64,000 nt of DNA from Sanghuangporus weigelae. Its lineage: Eukaryota > Basidiomycota > Agaricomycetes > Hymenochaetales > Hymenochaetaceae. Shown here in pieces: positions 4,021-45,853 of the stretch. A program made the translations under genes and the position numbers. Positions within the stretch are counted from its first letter, which is position 1, and each line of letters begins with the position of its first letter. Below the pieces are notes generated by a model that ran no database searches, was not told the origin of the DNA, and saw only the letters and a program-made list of their open reading frames with translations. Where the stretch lies: contig CP137327.1 in NCBI GenBank assembly GCA_033182465.1, positions 620,001 to 684,000 on the forward strand. The letters are read 5' to 3'.

Positions 4021-6169
4021 CTAATTGCCAATGAGAACCACGTCGCCCGTTTTTTTCACGGCAATCTTCAGAAAGATACATATCAGGACCTTGGCGCCAC
4101 ATGACAAGTAGATACTTACCTTTTTCTTCTGGGTAGAAGCCTTCACCGGATTCGGCGCCGAGAAGATCTCGTCCAGTTCCTCCAAGGTAAATCCGACGGT
4201 CTCAACGCAAAAGAAGTACCAAATCACCGCCTCGAATGCATCCCAGAACACGAAGACGATGATGTACTTCCAGCCAATTCTACCGAATGCGATGGGCGTG
4301 CAGAATAAGTTGATGAAAGATGTACAGGAGATGATGAAGATCTTCATGGCAACGCCCTTTGCGCGAGTTGTCGTTTCTAGACACTCAGCTGGGTACAGGG
4401 ACTGAAGAGGCGTGTACTGGGAAGGATCGTATAAGCTGATGAGTTCCTGTGAGTGTATATTTAGGACCATTACGAACCGTGAATCCATAGACCACGTTGA
4501 ATAGGACTGGTAAACGATAAGTAATGCCTTCATACATATGAGGCGGTCAAATGGACTCACAAAAGAAAGCGGCCCCTGCGCGACCAACGTTTAGATTCTC
4601 GTGGCCTAATTGGTAGTTCGCCCATGCTGCCGAGAACCCAGTGTTTGCAGCAAGCATGAAAGAGCATAAGAGCGTTCCCCATACGAGCACTCTGCGTCGC
4701 GGCATACGGTCTTCAAGTGACACCGCAGTCCAGGCAACCAATGCATTGCAGCAGGTTCCGATGAGGTTCATATTGAATTGCATTTTCTTGTCGAATCCTA
4801 ATGCTTCGTAGATCGAGAGCTGGGAAATGCGGACGTCAGATCGGCACATGTGCAATTGAGCTGCAAAAATCGTACATTGAAGTATCCTAGTCCGTTTCCT
4901 GACATCTGGCCGAAGAAACCCATGAGGAATACCATCAACATTCTCCACCTTGCATTATGATTCTTGACAAGAGCTCTAGGGGTTAAATACCCTTAGTATC
5001 AATGGTTCGTAAGAGAAATGATTCATTCCCACCCGTAGTCCCACCATCGCTTATCCGAACCATTCAGAGAGATGTTCTCTTTAAACTCCCGTATCTGGAG
5101 TTGAACGATAGGATTATTGATATTGCCGTTCCCATGATACTTTGTCAGGAAGTCAAAAGCTCGCTTCTCCTGATCGTGCATATAATGCCATCTTGGACTC
5201 TCCGGGAGGAACCACACAGTCAGGACGACAAGCGTAGCAGGGAGAGCCTGAAGAATGAGAGGAATTCTCCACGACCAGTCTGAATTCAAATTTGCTGTAC
5301 CGAGTGTGATTGCTGCAGCAGGAATTGCACCACCATTCCAGCCTGTGTTGTACAGTGAGGTCAGACGGCCTCTGTAACATATTTCACGTCGAATTCTGTT
5401 GCTATAAGCACCAGAAGAAGTGCAAGACGTACCTCCACTGTGGTGGAGCAACTTCAACTGTGTAAGTCGGAGCCGCTATTGTGGCAATTGCGATACCCAT
5501 GCCCAGGATAAATCGACCTCCAATGAATTGCTGACGGTGCATTGCCGAGGAGATAATCGCAGACCCAAGAATGATCGTCAAGCATCCTACAAACATCCCA
5601 GCGCGGCGGCCGAAACGGTCGCAAATCTGACCCGCAAAGAGTGAACCTGCCATCTGGCCGATGGTATAGATTGAAAAAATGATTCCAGTCGAGACATCCA
5701 ATTGGCCTCAATCAATAGTATGATTATCAGAAAGAAAACCATTTTTGACGACCAAATTTTGCCTCACCTTGGTTGAATCGATTCTGATAGAAAGGCATGC
5801 CGTTGATTGCGGTCATGAGGGACCCGTCATAGCCATTACCGCAGGAGCACATGAAAGCTGCTGCTGCGCCTGTGCAAAATCGCAATAACAATTCGTTCTC
5901 AGTTAGAATTCGAATACAGGTTAAAGCAAAGCCTTACATGCATAGATTACGAATGCCGCTTTGCTAAGTGGATCCGTCCCACCAGCTGCAACAGCGGCAG
6001 CAAACTCAGCATTCCGTGCTTCTTTCACTTCCACATCCCTCAACTCCTTATCGCATCCGTCGGCATGGTGGAGTTGAAGGCCAGATATGTGGTTTTCGTC
6101 GTGCTCCTCGACTTCAACCTTGCCATGAGACGCTTGGAAGGGCGAAGATGAATGTTTGGTTTCCGACAT
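4021..6169 (-). CDS. MFS sugar transporter (sugar porter family), copy 2
   Basis: A second sugar porter, clearly paralogous to the gene just to its left. The likely start is the ATG at 6169 (MSETKHSSSPFQ); an in-frame ATG seven codons earlier is possible. Successive exons carry SKAAFVIYA, NGYDGSLM, ICDRFGRRAGMF, GRLTSLYNTG, PESPRWHYMH, SGNGLGYFNV, LGFDKKMQFNMNL, GHENLNVGRAGA and YPAECLETTTRAKG, then TLEELDEIF and NPVKASTQKKK. A short intron (GTAAGT at about 4120) likely joins KKK to the final IAVKKTGDVVLIGN before the stop at 4021. The open frame also reads through that 54-base stretch. The gene looks whole. Tandem duplication with divergence suggests two transporters of related but possibly different substrate use. 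Confidence 0.88.
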
Positions 6170-33488: not shown

Positions 33489-34259
33489 TCAAACACGAGA
33501 GACATCCCTATCCGGCTTCACCATCTTCACAAACAGCTTAAAATCATGGTTCTCCGCTCGTTTAAGTCCACCAAACACTGTCTTCTCACCCAACCACCGC
33601 GTCAGCACGCTCTCACCCGACTGCTTCTTTCCAAAGGCGGACGACGCATCTGACGAACTCGAGAAGCTGCTCTCGCTGCTATCCGGCGTCACGTTCGCGT
33701 CAACTTCCAAACTCACAGCTTTCGGGCTGCGCGGGCGTTCGACGAGTTCGTCGCCCTCACCGTCTGCGTCTCCACTCACAACGCCTGACTTTGGGACCTT
33801 CGCGGACCTGAAGTTCCCCACGAGCTTCGGCGCGGGCCGGTGCAGGAACTTATCGAGCTCGATCAGGATATCGCGCACGCTGATCCCCGCTGTGCGCTCG
33901 ATCCGGAACTGGCGCTCGCCGTGGTTCAGGCACACGTGCTGCAGCTCGGGGATCTCGAGCAGGAGTGTCGTCTGCGCGGGCCGCGTGGCGGGCTCGTCGA
34001 GCCACGCTTCGGTGCGCGCGGACCAGTCGGTGGGGGTGGACATGTCGAGTGCGACGAGTGACGGGCACGTTTGGGAGTGTTTTGTTGGTGTGGAGGTGGG
34101 TGAGGAGGGCGAGGAGGTGGAGGTGGGCGAGGGCGAGGCGCGGCTGGCGCTGCGCTCGCGATTGTGTTTCTTCACGCTGAGCGAGCCCCGCCGGGAGAGC
34201 GAACGCTTCAGGCTGCCCAGGAGGGACGGGTCATCTCTAAGTGCGGCGTGCAGTTGCAT
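33489..34259 (-). CDS. DUF6699-type protein (3 of 4)
   Basis: An intronless 256-residue protein of unknown function. The N-terminus MQLHAALRDDPSLLGSLKRS is shared in pattern with the gene at 44924-45853 (DPSFLGSFKRLF), marking the two as paralogues. The domain elements are LDMSTPTDWSAR, LDEPATRPAQTTLLLEIPEL and ISVRDILIELDKFLHRPAPK. A Ser-rich low-complexity segment interrupts the domain near the C-terminus, before TRWLGEKTVFGGLKRAENHD. It lies on the left outer side of the Ubl-kinase island and points away from it. Confidence 0.7.
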   Translation of the reverse strand: MQLHAALRDDPSLLGSLKRSLSRRGSLSVKKHNRERSASRASPSPTSTSSPSSPTSTPTKHSQTCPSLVALDMSTPTDWSARTEAWLDEPATRPAQTTLLLEIPELQHVCLNHGERQFRIERTAGISVRDILIELDKFLHRPAPKLVGNFRSAKVPKSGVVSGDADGEGDELVERPRSPKAVSLEVDANVTPDSSESSFSSSSDASSAFGKKQSGESVLTRWLGEKTVFGGLKRAENHDFKLFVKMVKPDRDVSRV

Positions 34260-34419: not shown

Positions 34420-34745
34420 CTCGGCTGTTGCTCAGCCACACAACTCAATTACAAAAGTAGTGCCTCGTGTGCTCTGATCTCATATCCATCAGCACTGGCT
34501 GGCCGTGATAGCATCCCTTCAGGCGAATCTGGATACTGGCCTGGTCGACACCTTCTTTTCTTACAAGAACAACAGCAAACGAGAATAAAACAAACGGAAA
34601 ACAAATCTTTATTTATGCTGTGCATGTTATCATCAGGCCTAGGAACGATCAAACAAGGACTTCTCTCTTCTCTCGGCCGAACTTTCTCTCTCAGTTACTC
34701 CAATAGGATATCCCATGCGTCCTTCTCTTTTCATGGTTGCTTACA
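34420..34745. repeat. Inverted repeat, left arm (upstream of Ubl-kinase copy 1)
   Basis: This stretch matches the reverse complement of about 37983-38375 over some 300 bases with several small indels (clearly related, roughly three quarters identical by eye). Shared landmarks include CACTGGCTGGCCGTGATAG, AATAAAACAAACGGAAAACA and CTTTCTCTCTCAGTTAC. It lies upstream of kinase copy 1. Confidence 0.75.
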
Positions 34746-34938: not shown

Positions 34939-37316
34939 ATGCATATTGCTTTCGCTCTCAAGACTCCTGATGGAGAAACTTATTATATTGAAATAGAGCC
35001 CTCATTATTGGAGAAAGGTGTCGAGCGTATCAAGAACATATTCCAACGTGAAACAGCGTACGTTAGATCGCTTCTGTCATCTGGCGGTGTGTGGCTAACT
35101 GCACACAGAATTCCGCCGCACGAACAAACCCTTCAGTTATGCGAATGCACGAAAGATAGAGGTTTCTCCTTTAGAGATTCTCGGCAAGGTCAGTCTACTT
35201 TATTCAGGCATTGTTGTTTCTTTAGTCTCAGAGCCATGGGTAGCGCGAATACTCCGAACTGTTCAAGAAATCTGTAGTCTATGTTAACGATACGAAGGGT
35301 TGGGCCAGAGATGACATCACAAAACCTGCAAACAACTTGGAAAGATTCGTGGAGCGACAGAATTGCAATATCCACATCAACAACTTCTATGGTGATCTCA
35401 TCAAACCTCGACTAGTGGTAAGGTCCATGGTTGACTTGGAATTGCTTATAAGATTTGATTTTTTTTGCAAGACTTCGTCCATGGCAGCACGATTCCAGTC
35501 TTTATTGAAGGGTATTCAAGGCTTGAGGATGGACAATTTCTTTGAAATCGTCTCCGACGACGAGATGTCTGCCTGTGCCTCGGCGACAGAAATGGAGTGT
35601 TACAATAACATCTTTCACAACATAGTCAATCATTGCATTAAATTCAAGTCAGCTCGTAGTGACTCGTCCGGATTGCTTTGCTCGTTCTATGCCTCCACGC
35701 TGATGTTCCCCCCTTTCCTCTGGGACCGGACGGGTACCCTAGAATTACTCTAGTGCGTTTTTAAAGCCTGATTTGCACTTTGGATGGTGTCACTCATTTA
35801 CTTACAGCGATGTCGGTTCCCAAGTGCAAATGTTCGTCAAACCATTAAATGAGGGCAAATTCTACAAGTATTCTCCGCATAGCGATGTTGCTGTACTTTA
35901 TAACTCGGGAGACTCTCTTCCTTTTCTGATCTCTGAAGTCGATTCCAACAATCAGAAGCAAGACGAGGTTAGGATGATTTTTCAGGGCGCAGTGATCAGT
36001 CGCCAATGGCGATATGCCCTGAAGGAAGAGTTCAAGGACCGTATTATGCCAATTGGGCTATATGTTGATAAAACGTTGCGGATTGGTTTATCTTTGTTCC
36101 ATGCGGACGAAGGAGATAAGGTGCGTGATATTATCATGATTCTAGTGCATGTGTTTTTCATCTTTTCTTTACGTAGGTCCAGATTCTCAAGAAAACGTTT
36201 AGAGCAAATGATACGTGCGAGGCCCTTGAGCTTGCGCGTTGCTTATTCAATTACCGCAACAAATTGCGTGATATGTCAGTGCCGTACGATGAAGACCGGA
36301 TGCTCGAGTTCGAAAGTATTATCAAGGAGAATAATGACCTACCGACATTGACGAGTGGGAAAAGGAGGCAGCAGAATCAAGCAAAGAAGACAGACCAACT
36401 TGCTCCGATTCCTGAACACCCTGAGCACTCTGAAGGTGAAGTGCTACAGTCAGCGGCAAGTGTTGTTTGCCCAGATGGCACTCACATGGAACTCACGAAG
36501 GTCCGTGGTAACTTCTGAATCCTCCGACCAAGCCTGACTGATGAATTTGTCCAGCGCGTGAATGTCGCATCCGTGGAGACGAATACGTATCCTGTCAAGA
36601 CTGTCGGCTTCATGAAAATCACAAATTTCGCCGAACTCGAGGCTTTCGATCGTATTCGTGCTTCAGGATGCAAGTTTCTCCTTGAGCATGTTGTTCTTCC
36701 AACAAAGAGTGCTGAAATGCTTGGCCATTCTGTCATATTCTTGCCATACGGTGGGGAGCCACTTCATACTCATAGTTTGCGAATCGGAGCAATGATGGGA
36801 TACGAAACCTCTATCGCTGTGGAAATGCTCAAGACAATCTCTCATTTACACGAGATTCGCATCGCTCACTTGGATATCAAGCCGGGCAACATCCTCTGGG
36901 ATCGGTCGGCTCATACAGTCCGTGTGATTGATTTTGATTCGTCGTGGACATTCCAACCCGAGGAACGCGCCAGTGCCAATGTCGTGAGCGGAACCAAAGG
37001 CTATATCGCGCCGGAAGTTGAATCTTCTGGAGGACGCGAGTATGATCCTTTCCTCGCTGATGCATACGGTTGCGGGAAAGTACTCGAAGAAATGGTGGAT
37101 GAATCTCTTCAATCTGATGAGAAAGAACTTGTGCGTCGCATCGCAGAGGCTCTCACAATGGAGACTAGTCAGCGCTGGACTGTTTCGAAGGCCTTGGATG
37201 TGCTGACGGGCTACGTTGAGAGACGCCGTCAACGTAAAGTTCCATGGCCTAGTGCAGCGGAGATATCTGCCGATCCTCGTTTTAATACATCACAGGTGCA
37301 CGTTATTGTTCATTAG
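34939..37316 (+). pseudogene. Ubl-kinase gene, copy 1 (looks broken)
   Basis: Inverted paralogue of the whole gene at 42024-44426, with the same parts in the same order. These are an N-terminal ubiquitin-like domain (MHIAFALKTPDGETYY...EIEPS), an unassigned middle region (FYKYSPHSDVAVLYN ... LPFLISEVDS), a linker, and a C-terminal protein kinase with AHLDIKPGNILW, VIDFDSS and GTKGYIAPEV. Introns fall at the same sites as in copy 2. Compared with copy 2 it appears broken in about one place near the 5' end. The rest stays open and conserved, so the damage looks recent or the 3' part may still be expressed. Confidence 0.75.
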
Positions 37317-37739
37317 AGAATGCCTTGATATATACCCCTTGAATTGTCTTTATGCTTTTTTTGTGGAAATATACATATATGTATGCATTGTAAGTCCGGT
37401 CTTAGTGTATTAATAGCGTATAAGTTCGGTGATTATCTGAGTGGATTTACCCACATATGAGAGTGATGCTGGAAAGGTTTGACCGAGATGAAAACCCACT
37501 CATGATGCTTGCTTTTGAAAGCACATGTGCACAACAGAAATGAATAGCGGAAGTGATTTTGTTCAGTCGGTCTGGCTGACTCATTGAGCGCACACCATGA
37601 AACTGACGTGTACGTTCTTGTCGGAGGGATTCTGCGTAAATACGATATGTGCTAGAGTCGGTCACACAGTCAGACAACGAACGGAGCCACATAAATATGT
37701 ATCTGGTTATACGATTGAACACGACCTTGAATCGATTCA

Positions 37740-37830
37740 GACCACGTCATGACCCATTAATGACGGCTCTATCTCAATGTAATAATTTTTGTTCCATTCG
37801 GAACTGGAGAGCTATATTGATACCGCATGA
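37740..37830 (-). pseudogene. Truncated remnant of a third Ubl-kinase gene
   Basis: Read on the minus strand, this stretch aligns with the first about 75 bases of the Ubl-kinase gene (from its ATG through the 'EIEPalmG' codons), for example GAGATAGAGCC.TCATTAATGGG against GAAATAGAGCC.GCATTAATGGG in copy 2. The similarity stops there. It is a short, decayed fragment lying in reverse orientation behind copy 1. Confidence 0.6.
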
Positions 37831-37982
37831 ATATGGGAATTGTGGATTTGGAGAAATGAGCCACGATTCTGACTCTCGACCTAGACATCGCTTTATAAGT
37901 TGACAGACAACGAATCCATCTGTTCTGTCCGAGATTTACTTGTGAAAGAGTAGTGACGGTAAAGTCAACCCATGCTTATGGG

Positions 37983-38375
37983 AGGAGCAGAAAGGACGCG
38001 TGGAATATCCTATTGGGGTAACTGAGAGAGAAAGCTCCGCCGAGAGAAGAGAAGTCCTAAGAACCACTCTTGCTTGATCCTTCCTAGGCCCGATGACAAC
38101 ATGCACAGCAAAAATATGTGTGCAAAAATAATCTGTTTTCCGTTTGTTTTATTCTTGCTTGTTATTCATTTTACAATTACAAGACAAGAAATCTCCTGAA
38201 GGGCCTCGACGAGGCCACTGGCACTATCCAGACTCGCCTGATGGGATAACTGATAAGTACTATCACGGCCAGCCAGTGCTGATGTCCTTTCCTTCAAATT
38301 CGATATGGGACCAAAGCACACAAGGCATCACTACTTTATTATTGAGTTGGTGCAGCCGAGCAACAGCCAATTTAT
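37983..38375. repeat. Inverted repeat, right arm
   Basis: Reverse-complement partner of 34420-34745. Because the remnant of a third kinase copy lies just inside it on the same strand, this arm is best explained as the old upstream region of that lost copy. The LTR-like element is inserted at its outer end. Confidence 0.7.
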
Positions 38376-41300
38376 TGAAAGGATCCGCTCAAAAACTCGC
38401 ATCAGGATCGACGCGATCAACAGATCTACACGATCAGCTTTCCAAACGCGACCAGTAACCAAGCCAGCTATCACGGGCCCAAGCGATCGAGCGGCCTAGG
38501 CAACAGTAACCCGTTACCACCCGAGTGCTAGAAGCATCGAAGCGGATACATAATCCCGCTAACCGCTAACACCGCCGACCGCCTATTACCGCGGACTACC
38601 ACTCTAACACCGCCGACCAAGCAACCAGAACGACCTCAATCAAAAGAAGCGATCAAACTTCTTAGAAGTCCAGAAGCACAACTACTAAAGCCTAAATGCT
38701 AAAAGGCTAAAGGCTAATAAGGTGTTAGGGAGTAGGCCCGGGGTTACACCGGTTTGATCCTTTTGCCTAAGCAGCGGTGTGTTGTGCAGAGGTGATCTTA
38801 TCTACCCACGTCTGGCTGTACCACGCGGTCCCTTACTAGCCTTCCTAGTCGCGGTCCGAGTTATGGATGCTTTCAGATACGAGGTAATAGTAAAGCAGAT
38901 TGGTATTTTCAAGAGGCGTGATAGTACAAAGCACACAGTAATAGCTCGCTGTAGGGCAAGCTTTACACCAGTGTGTTAAGAGGATCGAAAGATGGGGAAA
39001 TGAGGGCCTAATCCTACAACTATTTATGCTCCCAGATATTCCATTTTCCGTCCTATTTCTTACTCATCCTGTCTCCACTTTACTCCACTTTCCTCCACCA
39101 TTACATCTGTTCCTTTGTCATCCTGCTGCGCTTCGCTCCACTTTGCTCCAATCTTTGTAAGGTCGTCTCCACTATGACAGAATTCTTTGGAGTTGCTGAC
39201 TGAGACAATAGAGGTGGTGCTCCGATATGGAATGCTCCACTGTCAGTACTCCATAACGATGTCATTGCCGTCATTGAGTGGCATCTTTGCTCTTGGAGCG
39301 ATGTAGGCTGCTCGGTATGTGATTCTTCGGAATTCATCTCGAGGTCCAGCGAGGGTAAGCATAACTCGCACGTCAGTGTTAAGGTGTCGGGTCGGTGTAG
39401 AGTATGGTCCAAGGCATATCATGAACTGCATAAGCTCTGCTGGTGGGTTCTGCTGGGTTCTGGTGACTAGCCATGCTTTGCCTTCGTATCGTATATCTCG
39501 AATGTAGCGCCATATCCTTCGTTGTATAAGGAGTTGTAATTGCTTGGTTTCCAGGTTCGCATCTCTCGGTAAATAAAGGTTTGCCTGTATCGTAGATGCT
39601 GGACATGGTGTGTGCAACTCCGGTCTATACCATCCAATCATTCTCCAAGTTATCGGGTTCGCAGTTCGAGGGGTCCGAGTTGTGATCGTGAGTTCCTCTC
39701 GTTTCTTGGGTACTATTGGGCTTGGTGGATTGGAATGCATTGTATCCTGAAGGTGTCGCTCGGTTTCGATGTGACAGTCACGCGTACCAACCGTTGCCGT
39801 GCATACTAAGTAGTATACTTCATAAAGGACCATGTAAACTCGTGCACAGACTTGACAGTGCTGAAATGCCAGTGAGGTCTCCATAAACCTTATTAGCCTT
39901 TAGCCTTTTAGCGTTTAGGCTTTAGTAGTTGTGCTTCTGGACTTCTAAGAAGTTTGATCGCTTCTTTTGATCGAGGTCGCTCTGGTTGCTTGGTCGGCGG
40001 CGTTAGAGTGGTAGTCCGCGGTAATAGGCGGTCGGCGGTGTTAGCTGTTAGCGGGATTACGTATCCGCTTCGGTGCTTCTAGCGCTCGGGTGGTAACGGG
40101 TTACTGTTGCCTAGGCCGCTCGATTGCTTGGGCCTTTGATAGCTGGCTTGGTTACCGGTCGCGTTTGGAAAGCTGATCGTGTAGATCTGTTGATCGTGTC
40201 GATCCTGATGCGAGTTTTTGAGCGGATCCTTTCATAAGGTTTATGGAGACCTCACTGGCATTTCAGCACTGTCAAGTCTGTGCACGAGTTTACATGGTCC
40301 TTTATGAAGTATACTACATAGTATGCACGGCAACAGTTGGTACACGTGACTGTCACATCGAAACCGAGCGACACCTTCAAGATACAATGCATTCCAATCC
40401 ACCAAACCCAATAGTACCCAAGAAACGAGAGGAACTCACGATCACAACTCGAACCCCTCGAACGGCGAATCCGATAACCTGGAGAATGATTGGATGGTAT
40501 AGACCGGAGTTGCACACACCATGTCCAGCATCTACGATACAGGCAAACCTTTATTTACCGAGAGATGCGAACCTGGAGACCAAGCAGTTACAACTCCTTA
40601 TACAACGAAGGATATGGCATTACATTCGAGACATACGATATGAAGGCAAAGCATGGCTAGTCACCAGAACCCAGCAGAACCCGCCAGCAGAGCTTATGCA
40701 GTTCATGATATGCCTTGGACCATACTCTACACCGACCCGACACCTTAACACGGACGTGCGAGTTATGCTCACCCTCGCTGCACCTTGAGATGAATTCCGA
40801 AGAATCACATACCGAGCAGCCTACATCGCTCCAAGGGCAAAGATGCCACTCAATAACGGCAATGACATCGTTATGGAGTACTGACAGAGGAGCATTCCAC
40901 ATCAGAACACCACCTCTATTGTCTCAGTCAGCAACTCCACAGAATTCTGTCATAGTGGAGATGACCTTACAAAGATTGGAGCAAAGTGGAGCGAAGCGCA
41001 GCAGGATGACAAAGGAACAGATGTTATGGTGGAGAAAAGTGGAGTAAAGTGGAGACAGGATGAGTAAGAAATAGGATGGAAAATGGAATATCTGGGAGCA
41101 TAAATAGTTGTAGGATTAGGCCCTCATTTCCCCATCTTTCGATCCTCTTAACACACTGGTGTAAAGCTTGCCCTACAGCGAGCTATTACTGTGTGCTTTG
41201 TACTATCACGCCTCTTGGAAATCCCAATCTGCTTTACTATCACCTCGTATCTGAAAGCATCCATAACTTGGACAGCGACTAAGAAGGCTAGTAAGGGACC

Positions 41301-41404
41301 GCGTGGTACAGCCAGACGTGGGTAGATAAGATCACCTCTGCACAACACACCACTGCTTAGGCAAAAGGATTGAACTGGTGTAACCCTGGGCCTACTTCCT
41401 AACA
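38376..41404 (+). mobile_element. LTR-like element (solo-LTR type), outer copy, split by insertion
   Basis: It begins TGAAAGGATCC and ends CTTCCTAACA, so it has TG...CA ends, and is flanked by an exact 5-bp target duplication TTTAT (38371-38375 and 41405-41409). Without the inserted copy it measures 1,512 bp (38376-38722 plus 40240-41404). TG...CA ends with a 5-bp duplication are the hallmark of an LTR, and there is no internal retrotransposon region, so a solo LTR is the best reading. A TATA-like ATAAATAG lies near 41102. It carries an open stretch with no known family. A fossil element of low divergence. Confidence 0.72.
38723..40234 (-). mobile_element. LTR-like element (solo-LTR type), inner copy
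   Basis: The same 1,512-bp element in reverse orientation, inserted into the outer copy. It begins TGTTAGGGAG and ends GGATCCTTTCA on the plus strand, with an exact target duplication TAAGG at 38718-38722 and 40235-40239. Its two parts (1,165 and 347 bp) have exactly the lengths of the outer copy's parts, with no net length change. By eye the copies differ by a few percent, mostly transitions. It is younger than the outer insertion. Confidence 0.75.
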
Positions 41405-41409
41405 TTTAT

Positions 41410-42023
41410 CCTAGAGAGCCATGATTTCAATTGCATATACGCACACACAGTGAGCCCACTAGCTGACCTCGTCAGAAACAACTTCAAAGAGATCGGTCAT
41501 GCCTAATTTGTGCATACATGTTAGTAGTTTCTGGCATTGAGCATGTATGGACGAGGACGTAGAAAGCGTAAAAATCTAATCAGAATTTTGAGTGAGCATG
41601 GAAAAATAGATTTAAAAATGAACAAATTGATGCACTCATCACCCGCCGAGGTCTATTCAAGCTGTAATAAAAGGTAAGTTATGACCGAAGCCTGAATTGT
41701 ATCAAAGCCGTGTTCCAATGCGAAACCAAATTAGTATTTATGTGGCTTCGTTCGTTGTCTGACTGTATGGTATTGCATGTTGTACATACGCAGAAACCTT
41801 GCTCACGTACAGAATGCTTGAGTTCCGAGTCACTGAATTAGCCAGAGACTGAACAACATCATTTCCGCTATTTATTTCTGTTGCATACATGTGCTTTTCA
41901 CCTCGCCAAACACATCACGAGTGGGTTTTATATCGATCAAGACCTTTCCAGCATCACCCTCATATATAGGTAAAACCATTAAACTTATACACATTCAATT
42001 CAAAGGGTATATCAAACCGCTTT
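41410..42023. other. 3' flank of Ubl-kinase copy 2
   Basis: Non-coding. The part from about 41680 to 42000 is the reverse-complement homologue of the flank behind copy 1 (about 37440-37740), so the duplicated block included 3' sequence. Nothing else is recognised. Confidence 0.6.
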
Positions 42024-44426
42024 CTAATGAACATTACCGTGCATCTGTGATGTATTAAAACGAGGATCCGCAGATATCTCCGCTGCACTAGGCCATGGAA
42101 CTTTATCTTGACGGCATCTCTCAACGTAGCCCGTCAGCACGTCCGACGCTTTCGAAACGGTCCAGCGCTGACTCTCCTCCATCGTGAGAGCCTCTGCGAT
42201 GCGACGCACAAGCTCCTTCTCATCAGATTGAAGAGATTCATCCACCAATTCTTTGAGTACTTTCCCACAGCTGTATGCATCAGCGAGGAAAGGATCATAC
42301 TCGCGTCCTCCAGAAGATTCAACTTCTGGTGCAATATAGCCTCTAGTTCCGCTCACGACATTGGCTCTGGCGCGTTCCTCGGGCTCGAATGTCCACGACG
42401 AATCAAAGTCAATCACACGGACTGTATGAGCCGACCGATCCCAGAGGATGTTGCCCGGCTTGAGATCCGAGTGAGCAATGCGAATCTCGTGTAAATGAGA
42501 GACTGTCTTGAGCATTTCCATAACGATCGAGGTTTCATATCCGATTAGCATACTACGAGTATGAAGTGGCTCCCCACCGTATGGCAAGAATATGACAGAA
42601 TGGCCAAGCATTTCAGCACTCTTTGTTGGAAGAACAACATGCTCAAGGAGAAACTTGCATCCTGAAGCACGAATACGATCGAAAGCCTCGAGTTCAGCGA
42701 AGTTGGTGATCTTCATAAAGCCGACAGTCTTGACAGGATACGAATTCGTCTTCACAGATGCGACATTTACGCGCTGGATAAATTCATCAATCAGGGCTTG
42801 GTTGGAAAATTCAGAAGTCGACACGGACCTTCGTGAGTTCCATGTGAGTGCCATCTGGGCAAACAACAGTCACCGCCGACCGCAGCGCTGCACCTTCAGA
42901 GTGGCTAGGGTGTTCAGGAATCGGATCAAGGTTGCCTGTCTTCTTTGCTTCATTCGGCTGCCTCCTTTTCCCACTCGTCAATGTCGGTAAATCATTGTTC
43001 TCCTTGATAGTACTTTCGAGTTCGAACATCCGGTCCTCACTGTACGGCACTGACATATCACGCATTTTGTTGCGAAAATTGAATAAGCAACGTGCAAGTT
43101 CAAGCGCCTCGCGCTTATTATTTGCTCTAAACCCCTTCTCGAGAATCTGGACCTATGTAAAGAAAATATGAAAATACACGCACTACAAAGTCATGATAAC
43201 ATCACGCACCTTATCCCCCTTGTCTGCATGGAACAAAAATAAACCGGTCCGCAACGTTTTATCAACATATAGACCGATTGGCATTATATGGTCCTTGAAC
43301 TCTTCCTTCAGGGCATATCGCCATTGGCGACTGAGCACTGCACCCTGAAAAATCATCCTAACCTCATATTGCTTCTGATTGTTAGAATCGACATCAGAGA
43401 TCAGAAAAGGAAGAGAGTCTCCCGAGTTATGAAGCACCGTAACATCGCCGTGCGGAGAATACTTGTAGAAGTTGCCCTCATTTAATGGTTTGACGAACAT
43501 TTGCACTTGGGAACCGACATCGCTGTAAGTAAATGAGTGACACCATCCAAAGTGCAAATCAGGCTTATAAAACGCACTAGAGTAATTCTAGGGTACCCGT
43601 CCGGTCCCAGAGGAAAGGGGGTAACATAAACGTGGAGGCATAGACTGTGCAAAGCAGTCCAGACGAGTCACTACGAGTTGGCTTGAATTTGATCCAATGA
43701 TTGCTTATGTTGTAAAAGATGTTATTGTAACACTCCATTTCTGTCGCCGACGCACAGGCAGACATCTTGTCGTCGGAGTCGATTTCAAAGAAATTGTCCA
43801 TCCCCAAGTATCGAAGGCCCTTCAATAAAGACTGGAACCGAGTAGCCATAGACGAAGTCTTGCAAGACAAATTAAGTCTTGTGAGTTGTATGAGCAGTTC
43901 CAAGTCAACCACGTACTCACCACTGGTCGAGGTTTGGTGAGATCATCATAGAAGTTTCTGATATGAATATTGCAATCCTGTGGCTCCTCGAATCTTTCCA
44001 AGTTGTTCACAGGTTTTTTTATGTCATCCCTGGTCCAGACCTGCTTGTCATCAACGTAGACTACAGACTTCTTGAACAAATCGGAGTATTCACGCTACCG
44101 GTGGCTCTGAGACTAAAGTAACAACAATGCCTGAATAAAGTAGACTGACCTTGCTGAGAATCTCTAAGGGAGAGAACTCGATCTTTCGCGCATCCTCACT
44201 AGGCGGTATCGCGTCACATAACTGAAGGGTTTGCTCATGCGGAGGTATTCTGTGTGCAGTTAGCCACACACCACCAGATGACAGAAGTGATCTGGACGAA
44301 CGCTGTTTCACGCTGGAATATGTCCTTGATACTATCCATGCCCTTTTCCAGACCCATTAATGCGGGCTCTATTTCAACATAATAAGTTTCTCCATCAGGA
44401 GTCTTGAGAGCAACAGCAATATGCAT
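42024..44426 (-). CDS. Ubiquitin-like-domain protein kinase, copy 2 (whole)
   Basis: Seven exons join in frame (44426-44302, 44249-44150, 44094-43921, 43858-43578, 43522-43210, 43152-42829 and 42773-42024) for 688 residues. Residues 1-75 resemble ubiquitin: VEIEPALMG and IKDIFQRETAIPPHEQTLQL line up with ubiquitin's EVEPSDT and IQDKEGIPPDQQRLIF. The middle (about 225-400) has GDVTVLHNSGDSLPFLISDV, which may be a degenerate PD-(D/E)xK-like fold (weak inference). The kinase (about 440-650) has a likely ATP-binding Lys in VGFMKITNFAELEAF, catalytic HSDLKPGN (HRD changed to HSD, Asp/Lys/Asn kept), DFD in place of DFG, and GTRGYIAPEV. There is no signal peptide or membrane helix. Ubl header plus kinase recalls the Crinkler-like 'CR' effector class; a role in conflict or signalling is inferred, not shown. 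Confidence 0.8.
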
Positions 44427-44923: not shown

Positions 44924-45853
44924 TCAAGTCAAGCTCCTCCGTCGCCTCGCCCACGGCGCCTCCATATTCAGCACAATGTCCGCCTCCGCCTCCCTGCCGT
45001 CCCGCGACTTCTTCAACCCGGCGAAGAAGAACTTCCCGCCGAGCCAGTCGATGCGCGGCGCGACCTTGCGATCGCGCTTCACCATCCGGCCGTGCGCGTC
45101 CACTTCTGCGCATTCCACGACTTGCATGAAACACAGCGGCGCTAGGTGCCCTCCTCCAGCTCCGCCTCCGCCTCCGATTCCGAAGCCGGCTCCTGCTCCG
45201 GCGCCGCCTTTCCCGTGCATGATGCTCATACTCATGCGTGCCCCGGCGCGCGCGGAGCGCCCGTGCGTCCGCGCGAGGTGCTTGACACGGAGCCGGTGCG
45301 CGCACTCGATGCGCTCCTGCAGACGCGGGTCCTCGGGCCAGTACGACGCGGGCACCTCCGCGTAGAGGAAACGGTCGAGCGCGGCGAGGACGTCGCGCAC
45401 GGTGACGAGCCGCGTTTGCCGGATGTGCAGCGTCCAGATGTCTTTGTCGACGTACCCTCCTGTTCCTCCTGTTTGTCCTCCGGATCCTGTCCTTGGCTCC
45501 TCTTTCCTTCCGGATTCTTCTCGTTCTCCTCCGGGTTCTTCGGAACAAGTCTCGCTACCGAGCGTCGTAGCCCGCGACTGCAACTCCGAAGACGAGGCTA
45601 TCGCCTGCAAGACGAGCGCGCGCAGCTCAGGCGCGAGCACGCTCAGCTCGCACGTCGGCGGGCTCGTCGCAGGCTGGTCGAGGAACGCACGGCCCGGCGG
45701 GCTGCTGCTGCTGCTGCGCTGGGCAGCGTACGCGTACCAGTCGACGCGCCGCGTCATGTCGATGTCGAGGTAGCACCCGCCCGCGCCGCTGTGCGAGAAG
45801 AGACGCTTGAACGAGCCGAGGAAGGACGGGTCGAGCGCGCTGTGTGGGTGCAT
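44924..45853 (-). CDS. DUF6699-type protein (4 of 4)
   Basis: An intronless 309-residue protein of unknown function. The N-terminus MHPHSALDPSFLGSFKRLFS and the order LDIDMTRRVDWYAYA, LDQPATSPPTCELSVLAPEL and VTVRDVLAALDRFLYAEVPA match the gene at 33489-34259. Two low-complexity inserts (a Glu/Gly-rich one and a Gly/Ala-rich one) expand the domain. After them come DAHGRMVKRDRKVAPRIDWL and GGKFFFAGLKKSRD, equal to the family's 'R.dwLg....F.GL' end. It stands on the right outer side of the kinase island. GC content is clearly higher than in the island. Confidence 0.7.
   Translation of the reverse strand: MHPHSALDPSFLGSFKRLFSHSGAGGCYLDIDMTRRVDWYAYAAQRSSSSSPPGRAFLDQPATSPPTCELSVLAPELRALVLQAIASSSELQSRATTLGSETCSEEPGGEREESGRKEEPRTGSGGQTGGTGGYVDKDIWTLHIRQTRLVTVRDVLAALDRFLYAEVPASYWPEDPRLQERIECAHRLRVKHLARTHGRSARAGARMSMSIMHGKGGAGAGAGFGIGGGGGAGGGHLAPLCFMQVVECAEVDAHGRMVKRDRKVAPRIDWLGGKFFFAGLKKSRDGREAEADIVLNMEAPWARRRRSLT

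What the first reader, a model, noticed from the sequence alone, without database searches (positions are those of the whole stretch)
34939..44426. Inverted pair of genes joining a ubiquitin-like header to a protein kinase
Seen: two genes with the same seven-exon plan, facing each other, each with an N-terminal segment that lines up with ubiquitin (EIEP...I...E.aIPP.eQtLqL) and a C-terminal kinase with a catalytic Asp but DFD in place of DFG. Established: Crinkler-like 'CR' effectors combine a ubiquitin-like header with nuclease-like and kinase domains and are often linked to transposons. Inference: these are basidiomycete members or relatives, possibly used in conflict with other fungi, hosts or selfish DNA. 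They do not start with a classical Crinkler N-terminus, so they may be an undescribed subfamily.
Basis: partly seen in the sequence, partly recalled or inferred. Interest (0 to 1): 0.75.

Follow-up and report, generated by a model that had tools for sequence, protein, structure and literature searches.

The report
Ubiquitin-headed Crinkler nuclease-kinase gene pair
A wood-decay mushroom carries two tail-to-tail copies of a gene whose protein joins a ubiquitin-like front piece to a nuclease-like middle and a protein kinase, a relative of the Crinkler conflict proteins with a front end of its own.

Summary
The window lies in a Sanghuangporus (Hymenochaetales) genome. Copy 2 (44426-42024, minus strand) is a seven-exon gene for 688 residues. 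Copy 1 (34939-37316, plus strand) is 88% identical in DNA, but a 20-base gap in exon 2 breaks its frame under that plan; the header splice of an annotated S. weigelae relative gives 655 residues with a cut header.

The header is ubiquitin-like by sequence (28 of 29 PDB matches are ubiquitin or variants). The kinase keeps its catalytic residues and has DFD for DFG.

The new result is the middle. Its exon is homologous to the PD-(D/E)xK-type (REase) exon of Crinkler-type REase-kinase genes in the same genome. HMM searches find the link in both directions, profile comparison gives 96.7% (score 60.9; at most 19.7 in shuffles), and two to three introns share position and phase.

So these are CR (Crinkler-type) REase-kinase proteins with a header unlike PF20147. 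All 28 relatives found come from four Sanghuangporus species. The usual nuclease lysine is aspartate in 23 of 23 aligned rows. Function is inferred: a nuclease-like domain governed by its kinase, compare CRN8 and SPOK. Secretion, toxicity and transposon carriage are unshown; both structure models were poor.

The parts
42024..44426 (-). Copy 2: complete gene, 688 residues, exons 44302-44426, 44150-44249, 43921-44094, 43578-43858, 43210-43522, 42829-43152, 42024-42773
   Evidence: best relative P0001 of S. weigelae, 95% identity over 100% of the query
44150..44426 (-). Copy 2 ubiquitin-like header (residues 1-75, exons 1-2)
   Evidence: ubiquitin best in the PDB; no PF20147 match
43210..43522 (-). 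Copy 2 nuclease-like (REase) core exon, motif D253...D270-V-D272-S273
   Evidence: HMM of five own-genome Crinkler-type REases, E 3.2e-6; intron positions shared with those genes; residues
42024..42773 (-). Copy 2 protein kinase exon, HSDLKPGN and DFD
   Evidence: PF00069 E 7.6e-20, above cut-off; catalytic residues
34939..37316 (+). Copy 1: same gene, exon 2 lacks 20 bases relative to copy 2; frame broken under the shared plan, 655-residue frame under the header splice of P0006
35808..36120 (+). Copy 1 nuclease-like (REase) core exon, motif D...E-V-D-S
   Evidence: HMM of five own-genome Crinkler-type REases, E 2.1e-8
36555..37316 (+). Copy 1 protein kinase exon, HLDIKPGN and DFD
   Evidence: PF00069 E 8.1e-19, above cut-off
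38376..41404 (.). LTR-retrotransposon pieces between the two copies: LTR 38723-39893 and its inverse 40234-41404, with 357-base pieces at 38376-38732 and 39879-40234

Best explanation
The two genes are Crinkler-type (CR) REase-kinase proteins of a branch seen only in Sanghuangporus, whose front end is a ubiquitin-like domain that does not match the classical Crinkler header. Shown: the ubiquitin resemblance of the header, homology of the REase exon with Crinkler-type REase-kinase genes of the same genome, and a kinase with its catalytic residues. Inferred: the protein works inside cells, probably in the nucleus; the ubiquitin-like header docks or routes it and is not conjugated (no C-terminal di-glycine); the REase domain attacks nucleic acid; the kinase on the same chain restrains or licenses that activity, as reported for SPOK and as proposed for CR proteins. 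Copy 1, with its header cut but REase and kinase open, may be a decoy or resistance form, or a gene on its way out.
For: Header; Crinkler headers of the same genome also have ubiquitin as best PDB match, more weakly (E 0.011). REase: in 3706 ORFs the family REase HMM finds, below E 0.01, only family members and L060 (2.8e-5) and L059 (1.8e-4); in a smaller set it also finds L063, L061 and L062. An HMM of those five finds both window copies (2.1e-8, 3.2e-6), and every hit below E 0.01 is a family member or L059/L060 themselves. hhalign: 94.5% with L059 and L060 alone, 96.7% and score 60.9 with all five, against at most 19.7 in 100 column shuffles. Introns: phase 0 after the REase exon in 5 of 5 of these genes, phase 2 before it in 4 of 5 (read by eye). 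Kinase: best non-family matches are L060 and L059 (these loci were partly chosen by kinase similarity). DFD in 12 of 12 family, 5 of 5 CR-type and 6 of 6 FunK1 rows put in the tree; of 5 ordinary kinases 3 had DFG and 2 no DFx match. Constraint: copy 1 against copy 2 dN/dS 0.33 over 651 codons, no stops in the six exons compared. Mechanism precedents, passages only: PMC5289972, PMC6660238, PMC9972908, PMC3426532.
Against: The canonical PD-(D/E)xK lysine is Asp in 23 of 23 rows of A2, and in SPOK that lysine is needed for killing. 4 of the 5 own-genome CR-type genes also have Asp there, so it may be an alternative site or a lost one. D253 is D in only 19 of 23 rows. Of the five CR-type genes only L059 passes the PF20147 cut-off; L060 (19.4 bits, cut-off 24.6) and L063 (14.4 bits) fall below it and the headers of L061 and L062 were not found. 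Family header against Crinkler header gave no profile match (0.2%). The kinase tree joins family and CR rows, together with one ordinary kinase, only with weak support (20/87). Both structure models were poor, and the REase profile had no meaningful PDB match. No expression, localisation or activity data.
Confidence: 0.6

Rival explanations
1. Single-gene toxin-antidote driver of the SPOK kind: the nuclease kills spores or cells that do not inherit the gene and the kinase protects those that do.
For: Same order of domains (unknown front domain, nuclease, kinase); a genus-limited, clustered family with at least one broken copy. SPOK work assigns killing to the nuclease and resistance to the kinase (passages); a Fusarium paper ties this architecture to Zhang et al. 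2016 (passages).
Against: The SPOK cysteine cluster is in 0 of 29 family proteins; the catalytic lysine is absent; the SPOK homologues described in the passages seen are from ascomycetes; no segregation data; no SPOK sequence was compared.
Confidence: 0.2
2. Secreted or translocated effector used against other fungi or the host tree.
For: CRN proteins of oomycetes act in host nuclei (passages); basic cluster KRRQPNEAKK at residue 393 of copy 2.
Against: No signal-like N-terminus by eye: the longest run of AVLIMFWCG in the first 30 residues of copy 2 is 5 (no signal-peptide program was run). The review says CR headers were judged to lack signal peptides too, so this weighs little. No expression data.
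Confidence: 0.2
3. Nuclease-dead remnant: the REase fold is kept as a binding module and only the kinase works, as an intracellular immune or signalling kinase.
For: Lys replaced by Asp in 23 of 23 A2 rows, E270 also D in P0001 and window copy 2, D253 not D in 4 of 23; kinase residues conserved.
Against: The changed site is itself conserved (D272 and S273 in 23 of 23, E270 in 22 of 23), and the REase exon has the lowest dN/dS of the six compared exons (0.20); acid-for-lysine sites exist in active restriction enzymes (BamHI, recalled).
Confidence: 0.3
4. Member of the FunK1 fungal kinase expansion rather than of the CR group.
For: The FunK1 kinases tested also have DFD (6 of 6); PF17667 matches weakly below its cut-off; many PF17667 loci in the genome.
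Against: REase profile against FunK1 0.07% and kinase profile against FunK1 11.8% (that FunK1 alignment mixed fragments), against 96.7% and 99.4% with CR-type genes; the family REase HMM hit none of 12 FunK1 loci.
Confidence: 0.05

Closest known systems
Crinkler (CRN/CR) proteins with REase plus kinase, e.g. Phytophthora CRN8
   Same: Ubiquitin-like header, REase-type middle and kinase end; REase plus kinase is about one sixth of CR C-termini according to PMC5289972 (passages)
   Different: Header does not match PF20147; kinase has HLD or HSD and DFD (CRN8 is an RD kinase); REase has ExD instead of ExK; header and middle segment differ from the Crinkler-type genes of the same genome
Podospora SPOK spore killers
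   Same: Unknown front domain, PD-(D/E)xK-type nuclease, then kinase on one chain (passages)
   Different: SPOK has a catalytic lysine and a cysteine cluster, neither found here, and a coiled coil (not tested here); no drive shown
FunK1 (PF17667) fungal kinases
   Same: Fungal, clustered, DFD kinases
   Different: No REase or header similarity detected
Ubiquitin
   Same: Header lines up over residues 2-52, including IPPxxQ
   Different: Fused to the front of a larger protein; the place of ubiquitin Ile44 is Gln in the alignment; no C-terminal Gly-Gly

Membership tests
CR (Crinkler-type) REase-kinase proteins, wide sense of Zhang et al. 2016 as summarised in PMC5289972 (original not held) | Ubiquitin-like or other CR header at the N-terminus | tested here: met
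   Ubiquitin-like by sequence; the fold itself was not confirmed
CR (Crinkler-type) REase-kinase proteins, wide sense of Zhang et al. 2016 as summarised in PMC5289972 (original not held) | REase-superfamily domain homologous to that of Crinkler proteins | tested here: met
   Homology to the REase-position exon of own-genome Crinkler-type genes: HMMs both ways and hhalign with controls, shared introns. That this domain is a PD-(D/E)xK fold rests on its motif and the review, not on a structure
CR (Crinkler-type) REase-kinase proteins, wide sense of Zhang et al. 2016 as summarised in PMC5289972 (original not held) | Protein kinase coupled to the REase | tested here: met
   PF00069 above cut-off in both copies; catalytic residues
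CR (Crinkler-type) REase-kinase proteins, wide sense of Zhang et al. 2016 as summarised in PMC5289972 (original not held) | Canonical PD-(D/E)xK lysine (not stated in the review passages as required of every member) | tested here: not met
   ExD in 23 of 23 A2 rows, but also in 4 of 5 own-genome CR-type genes
CR (Crinkler-type) REase-kinase proteins, wide sense of Zhang et al. 2016 as summarised in PMC5289972 (original not held) | Nucleic-acid-directed activity in the nucleus | not testable with these tools
   Needs experiments
Classical Crinkler header family PF20147 | Match to PF20147 | tested here: not met
   No match for 7 family proteins at E <= 10, the copy 2 header alone or 23 members at E <= 1; header profile against Crinkler headers 0.2%
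SPOK | Nuclease lysine required for killing | tested here: not met
SPOK | Cysteine cluster C-x3-C-x13-C-x5-H-x7-H before the kinase | tested here: not met
   0 of 29 proteins
SPOK | Biased transmission | not testable with these tools
   Needs crosses
FunK1 / PF17667 | Score above the PF17667 cut-off | tested here: not met
   13.7 bits against a cut-off of 24.1 for P0001; 13.8 and 12.1 for the two window kinase exons
Ubiquitin | C-terminal Gly-Gly for conjugation | tested here: not met
   Header continues into the protein without Gly-Gly

The most novel reading that the evidence does not exclude
One fungal genome has put at least two, perhaps three, front ends on the same REase-kinase module (classical Crinkler, a divergent Crinkler-like one in L063, and a plainly ubiquitin-like one in the window). 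The ubiquitin-headed branch uses an altered but conserved ExDS nuclease site and serves inside the mushroom itself, as self/non-self or selfish-gene weaponry in which a full-length copy and a header-cut copy form a killer-protector pair.
Probability: 0.12. Interest if true: 0.8.

Novelty: new variant of a known kind. Interest (0 to 1): 0.45.

Why it matters
It ties a genus-limited mushroom family that databases mostly call 'hypothetical protein' (one is named STK17B) to the Crinkler group, in fungi for which no paper in the searched library mentions Crinklers. Crinkler-headed and ubiquitin-headed versions of one REase-kinase module occur in a single genome, so the role of the header can be compared directly. 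The conserved Asp in place of the nuclease Lys gives a sharp yes/no test of whether this branch still cuts nucleic acid.

Tried and rejected
Structure route: two AlphaFold jobs (P0001 first, 16 rows; P0084 first, 27 rows) gave mean pLDDT 52.9 and 52.5. Foldseek listed kinases for the first (50 rows shown) and nothing at E <= 0.001 for the second, so no fold claim rests on them. The REase profile had one PDB match, a ribosomal protein at E 0.89. The second protein search, with alignment A1, added only one generic kinase. The kinase tree has no deep support.

Considered and rejected: FunK1 membership; chance resemblance of the REase (controls); a known transposon carrying the gene (the inverted repeat around copy 1, 34423-34724 and 37992-38368, has only these two places in the genome; the LTR pieces belong to an abundant family).

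Limits: L059 and L060 were picked because a kinase and a Crinkler-header match lie together, L061-L063 because their kinases matched, so only their REase and introns are independent evidence. Other PF20147 loci were not followed to their ends. The fungal coverage of the protein database is unknown and its search needs shared words. Zhang et al. 2016 could not be read. A2 holds 23 of the 28 family proteins (P0006, P0016 and P0081-P0083, shortened or partial, were left out); the kinase tree holds 12 of them.
Full report
Where it lies. The window is contig C10:620001-684000 of a 33.87 Mb, 13-contig genome. The closest relative of the copy 2 protein is Sanghuangporus weigelae ACEPAI_2094 (P0001), 95% identical over the full length, so the organism is a Sanghuangporus, a genus of medicinal macrofungi (start of the abstract of PMC10803629 in a search listing). 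That the genus is wood-decaying and belongs to Hymenochaetales is recalled.

The observation. Copy 1 (34939-37316, +) and copy 2 (44426-42024, -) are tail to tail and 88% identical in DNA. Copy 2 splices cleanly from seven exons into 688 residues. Copy 1 lacks 20 bases in exon 2 relative to copy 2, and under the shared plan its frame ends after 80 residues. The third copy, on C9, still has the full exon 2, so the gap arose in the copy 1 lineage. The annotated S. weigelae protein P0006 appears to run on past the exon 1 splice site and to jump into exon 3. The same header splice in the window gives 655 residues with the IPPxEQ part of the header missing (a second internal gap of P0006 was not copied). 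Six exons of the two copies compared codon by codon have dN/dS 0.33 over 651 codons and no stops (exon 2 was left out because of the gap), which speaks against long free decay.

The header. Residues 1-89 searched against PDB sequences give 29 matches at E <= 10: 28 ubiquitins, variants or fusions, best E 0.0048, and lysostaphin. The ten-row header profile gives 265 matches at E <= 10, and the 60 rows shown are ubiquitin, NEDD8/RUB1 or engineered forms, with one row under another name. The best E-values there come from chains with several ubiquitins; single domains score about 0.02-0.1. Pfam finds no family in the copy 2 header. As a control, seven Crinkler headers from the same genome also have ubiquitin on top, more weakly (E 0.011; 9 matches at E <= 10, 6 of them ubiquitin or a ubiquitin design and 3 others). 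Header against header by hhalign gives 0.2%. Both are ubiquitin-like but not detectably the same header.

The middle domain. A PF20147 (Crinkler) search of the genome gives 23 matches at E <= 1, 17 of them above the family cut-off. Two loci with a Crinkler-header match and a kinase downstream were read: L059 passes PF20147 (35.7 bits, cut-off 24.6), L060 falls short of it (19.4 bits), but its header is 59% identical to that of L059. Three further loci were chosen by kinase similarity (L061-L063): L063 has a weak Crinkler-like header (14.4 bits), and the headers of L061 and L062 were not identified. An HMM of the window family's REase region, run on 3706 ORFs of 60 loci plus the window, finds below E 0.01 only the family itself and the REase exons of L060 (2.8e-5) and L059 (1.8e-4); none of 12 FunK1 loci, 8 ordinary kinase loci or 8 other Crinkler-header loci was hit. 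L063, L061 and L062 were hit at 1.1e-8, 1.7e-6 and 2.2e-5 in a smaller set. In reverse, an HMM of these five REases alone finds window copy 1 (2.1e-8) and copy 2 (3.2e-6). The best shuffled ORF of 18530 reached 0.26 for that HMM and 0.051 for the family HMM. Profile comparison: 94.5% with L059 and L060 alone; 96.7%, E 3.4e-10, score 60.9 with all five, against at most 19.7 in 100 column shuffles.

Gene structure (read by eye from the printed DNA). In the five CR-type genes and both window copies the REase exon ends at a phase 0 intron at the aligned place. A phase 2 intron before the REase exon is present in 4 of 5 (not L060) and in both window copies. A phase 0 intron before the kinase is clear in L059, L062 and both window copies; in L061 and L063 the acceptor is there but the donor would be of the rarer GC type; it was not seen in L060.

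Active sites. In the 23 aligned family rows (A2) the REase site is D253 (D in 19), E270 (E in 22; D in P0001, as in window copy 2), D272 (23) and S273 (23). The lysine of PD-(D/E)xK is thus Asp. L060 keeps ExK; L059, L061, L062 and L063 have [ED]xDS. Kinase: K460 and E466 in 23 of 23; H540, D542, N547 and D561 in 22 of 22 rows that reach there; DFD in 20 of 22 and DFG in 2, P0013 and P0080. DFD is also found in 5 of 5 CR-type kinases and 6 of 6 FunK1 kinases tested, so it is not peculiar to this family.

Family and range. The three protein searches returned 71, 7 and 22 proteins. Together 28 of them belong to this family, all from S. weigelae (9), S. sanghuang (8), S. vaninii (7) and S. baumii (4); the others match over at most 26% of the query and look like generic kinases. 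In the window's genome the family has the C10 pair, a C9 copy, a C1 cluster with seven kinase matches between 240 and 261 kb, and partial matches at C1:3.88 Mb and C2:0.63 Mb. The C9 copy carries stop codons, has no kinase match on C9, and runs at the start of exon 7 into other sequence; about 1.1 kb further on lies a stretch 96% identical to the first 354 bases of the LTR found between the window copies.

Mechanism. Zhang et al. 2016, seen only through passages of the review PMC5289972, propose that in REase-kinase CR proteins the REase is the toxic part and the kinase regulates it. [quoted passage not shown] SPOK assigns killing to a PD-(D/E)xK nuclease and resistance to the kinase of the same protein (passages), and SPOK toxicity in laboratory E. 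coli and yeast goes with DNA damage (passages). By analogy I expect a nuclear protein acting on nucleic acid and governed by its kinase. Whether this branch cuts anything is open because of the ExD site.

Novelty. No paper in the held library contains Crinkler together with Sanghuangporus or with words beginning Hymenochaet. The architecture is known; the header type and the branch appear new, but the header lists of Zhang et al. could not be checked. I therefore call it a new variant of a known kind.

Noticed in passing
38376-41404: LTR of 1171 bases and its inverted copy with internal pieces; the LTR has 40 near-identical full-length matches in the genome (a lower bound: 40 of 407 candidates scored), often in pairs about 10.8 kb apart, so probably a recently active retrotransposon.
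   Followed up: partly
34423-34724 and 37992-38368: Inverted repeat, 68% identical, flanking copy 1; only these two places in the genome.
   Followed up: partly
33492-34256 (-) and 44927-45850 (-): Genes of the DUF6699 family (PF20415, above cut-off) flank the gene pair on both sides.
   Followed up: partly
1030-2777 and 4118-5873: Direct repeat of about 1.75 kb, 71.6% identical.
   Followed up: no
L061 (G000:C11:48700-51600): CR-type kinase with HLNINPEN in place of HxDxKxxN, a likely inactive kinase beside a REase motif like that of its neighbours.
   Followed up: no
G000, PF20147 loci: 17 Crinkler-header matches above cut-off in one mushroom genome, some near contig starts or ends (C2:2.8 kb, C13:15 kb, C11:15 kb, C5:23 kb, C11:1.794 of 1.801 Mb).
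   Followed up: no
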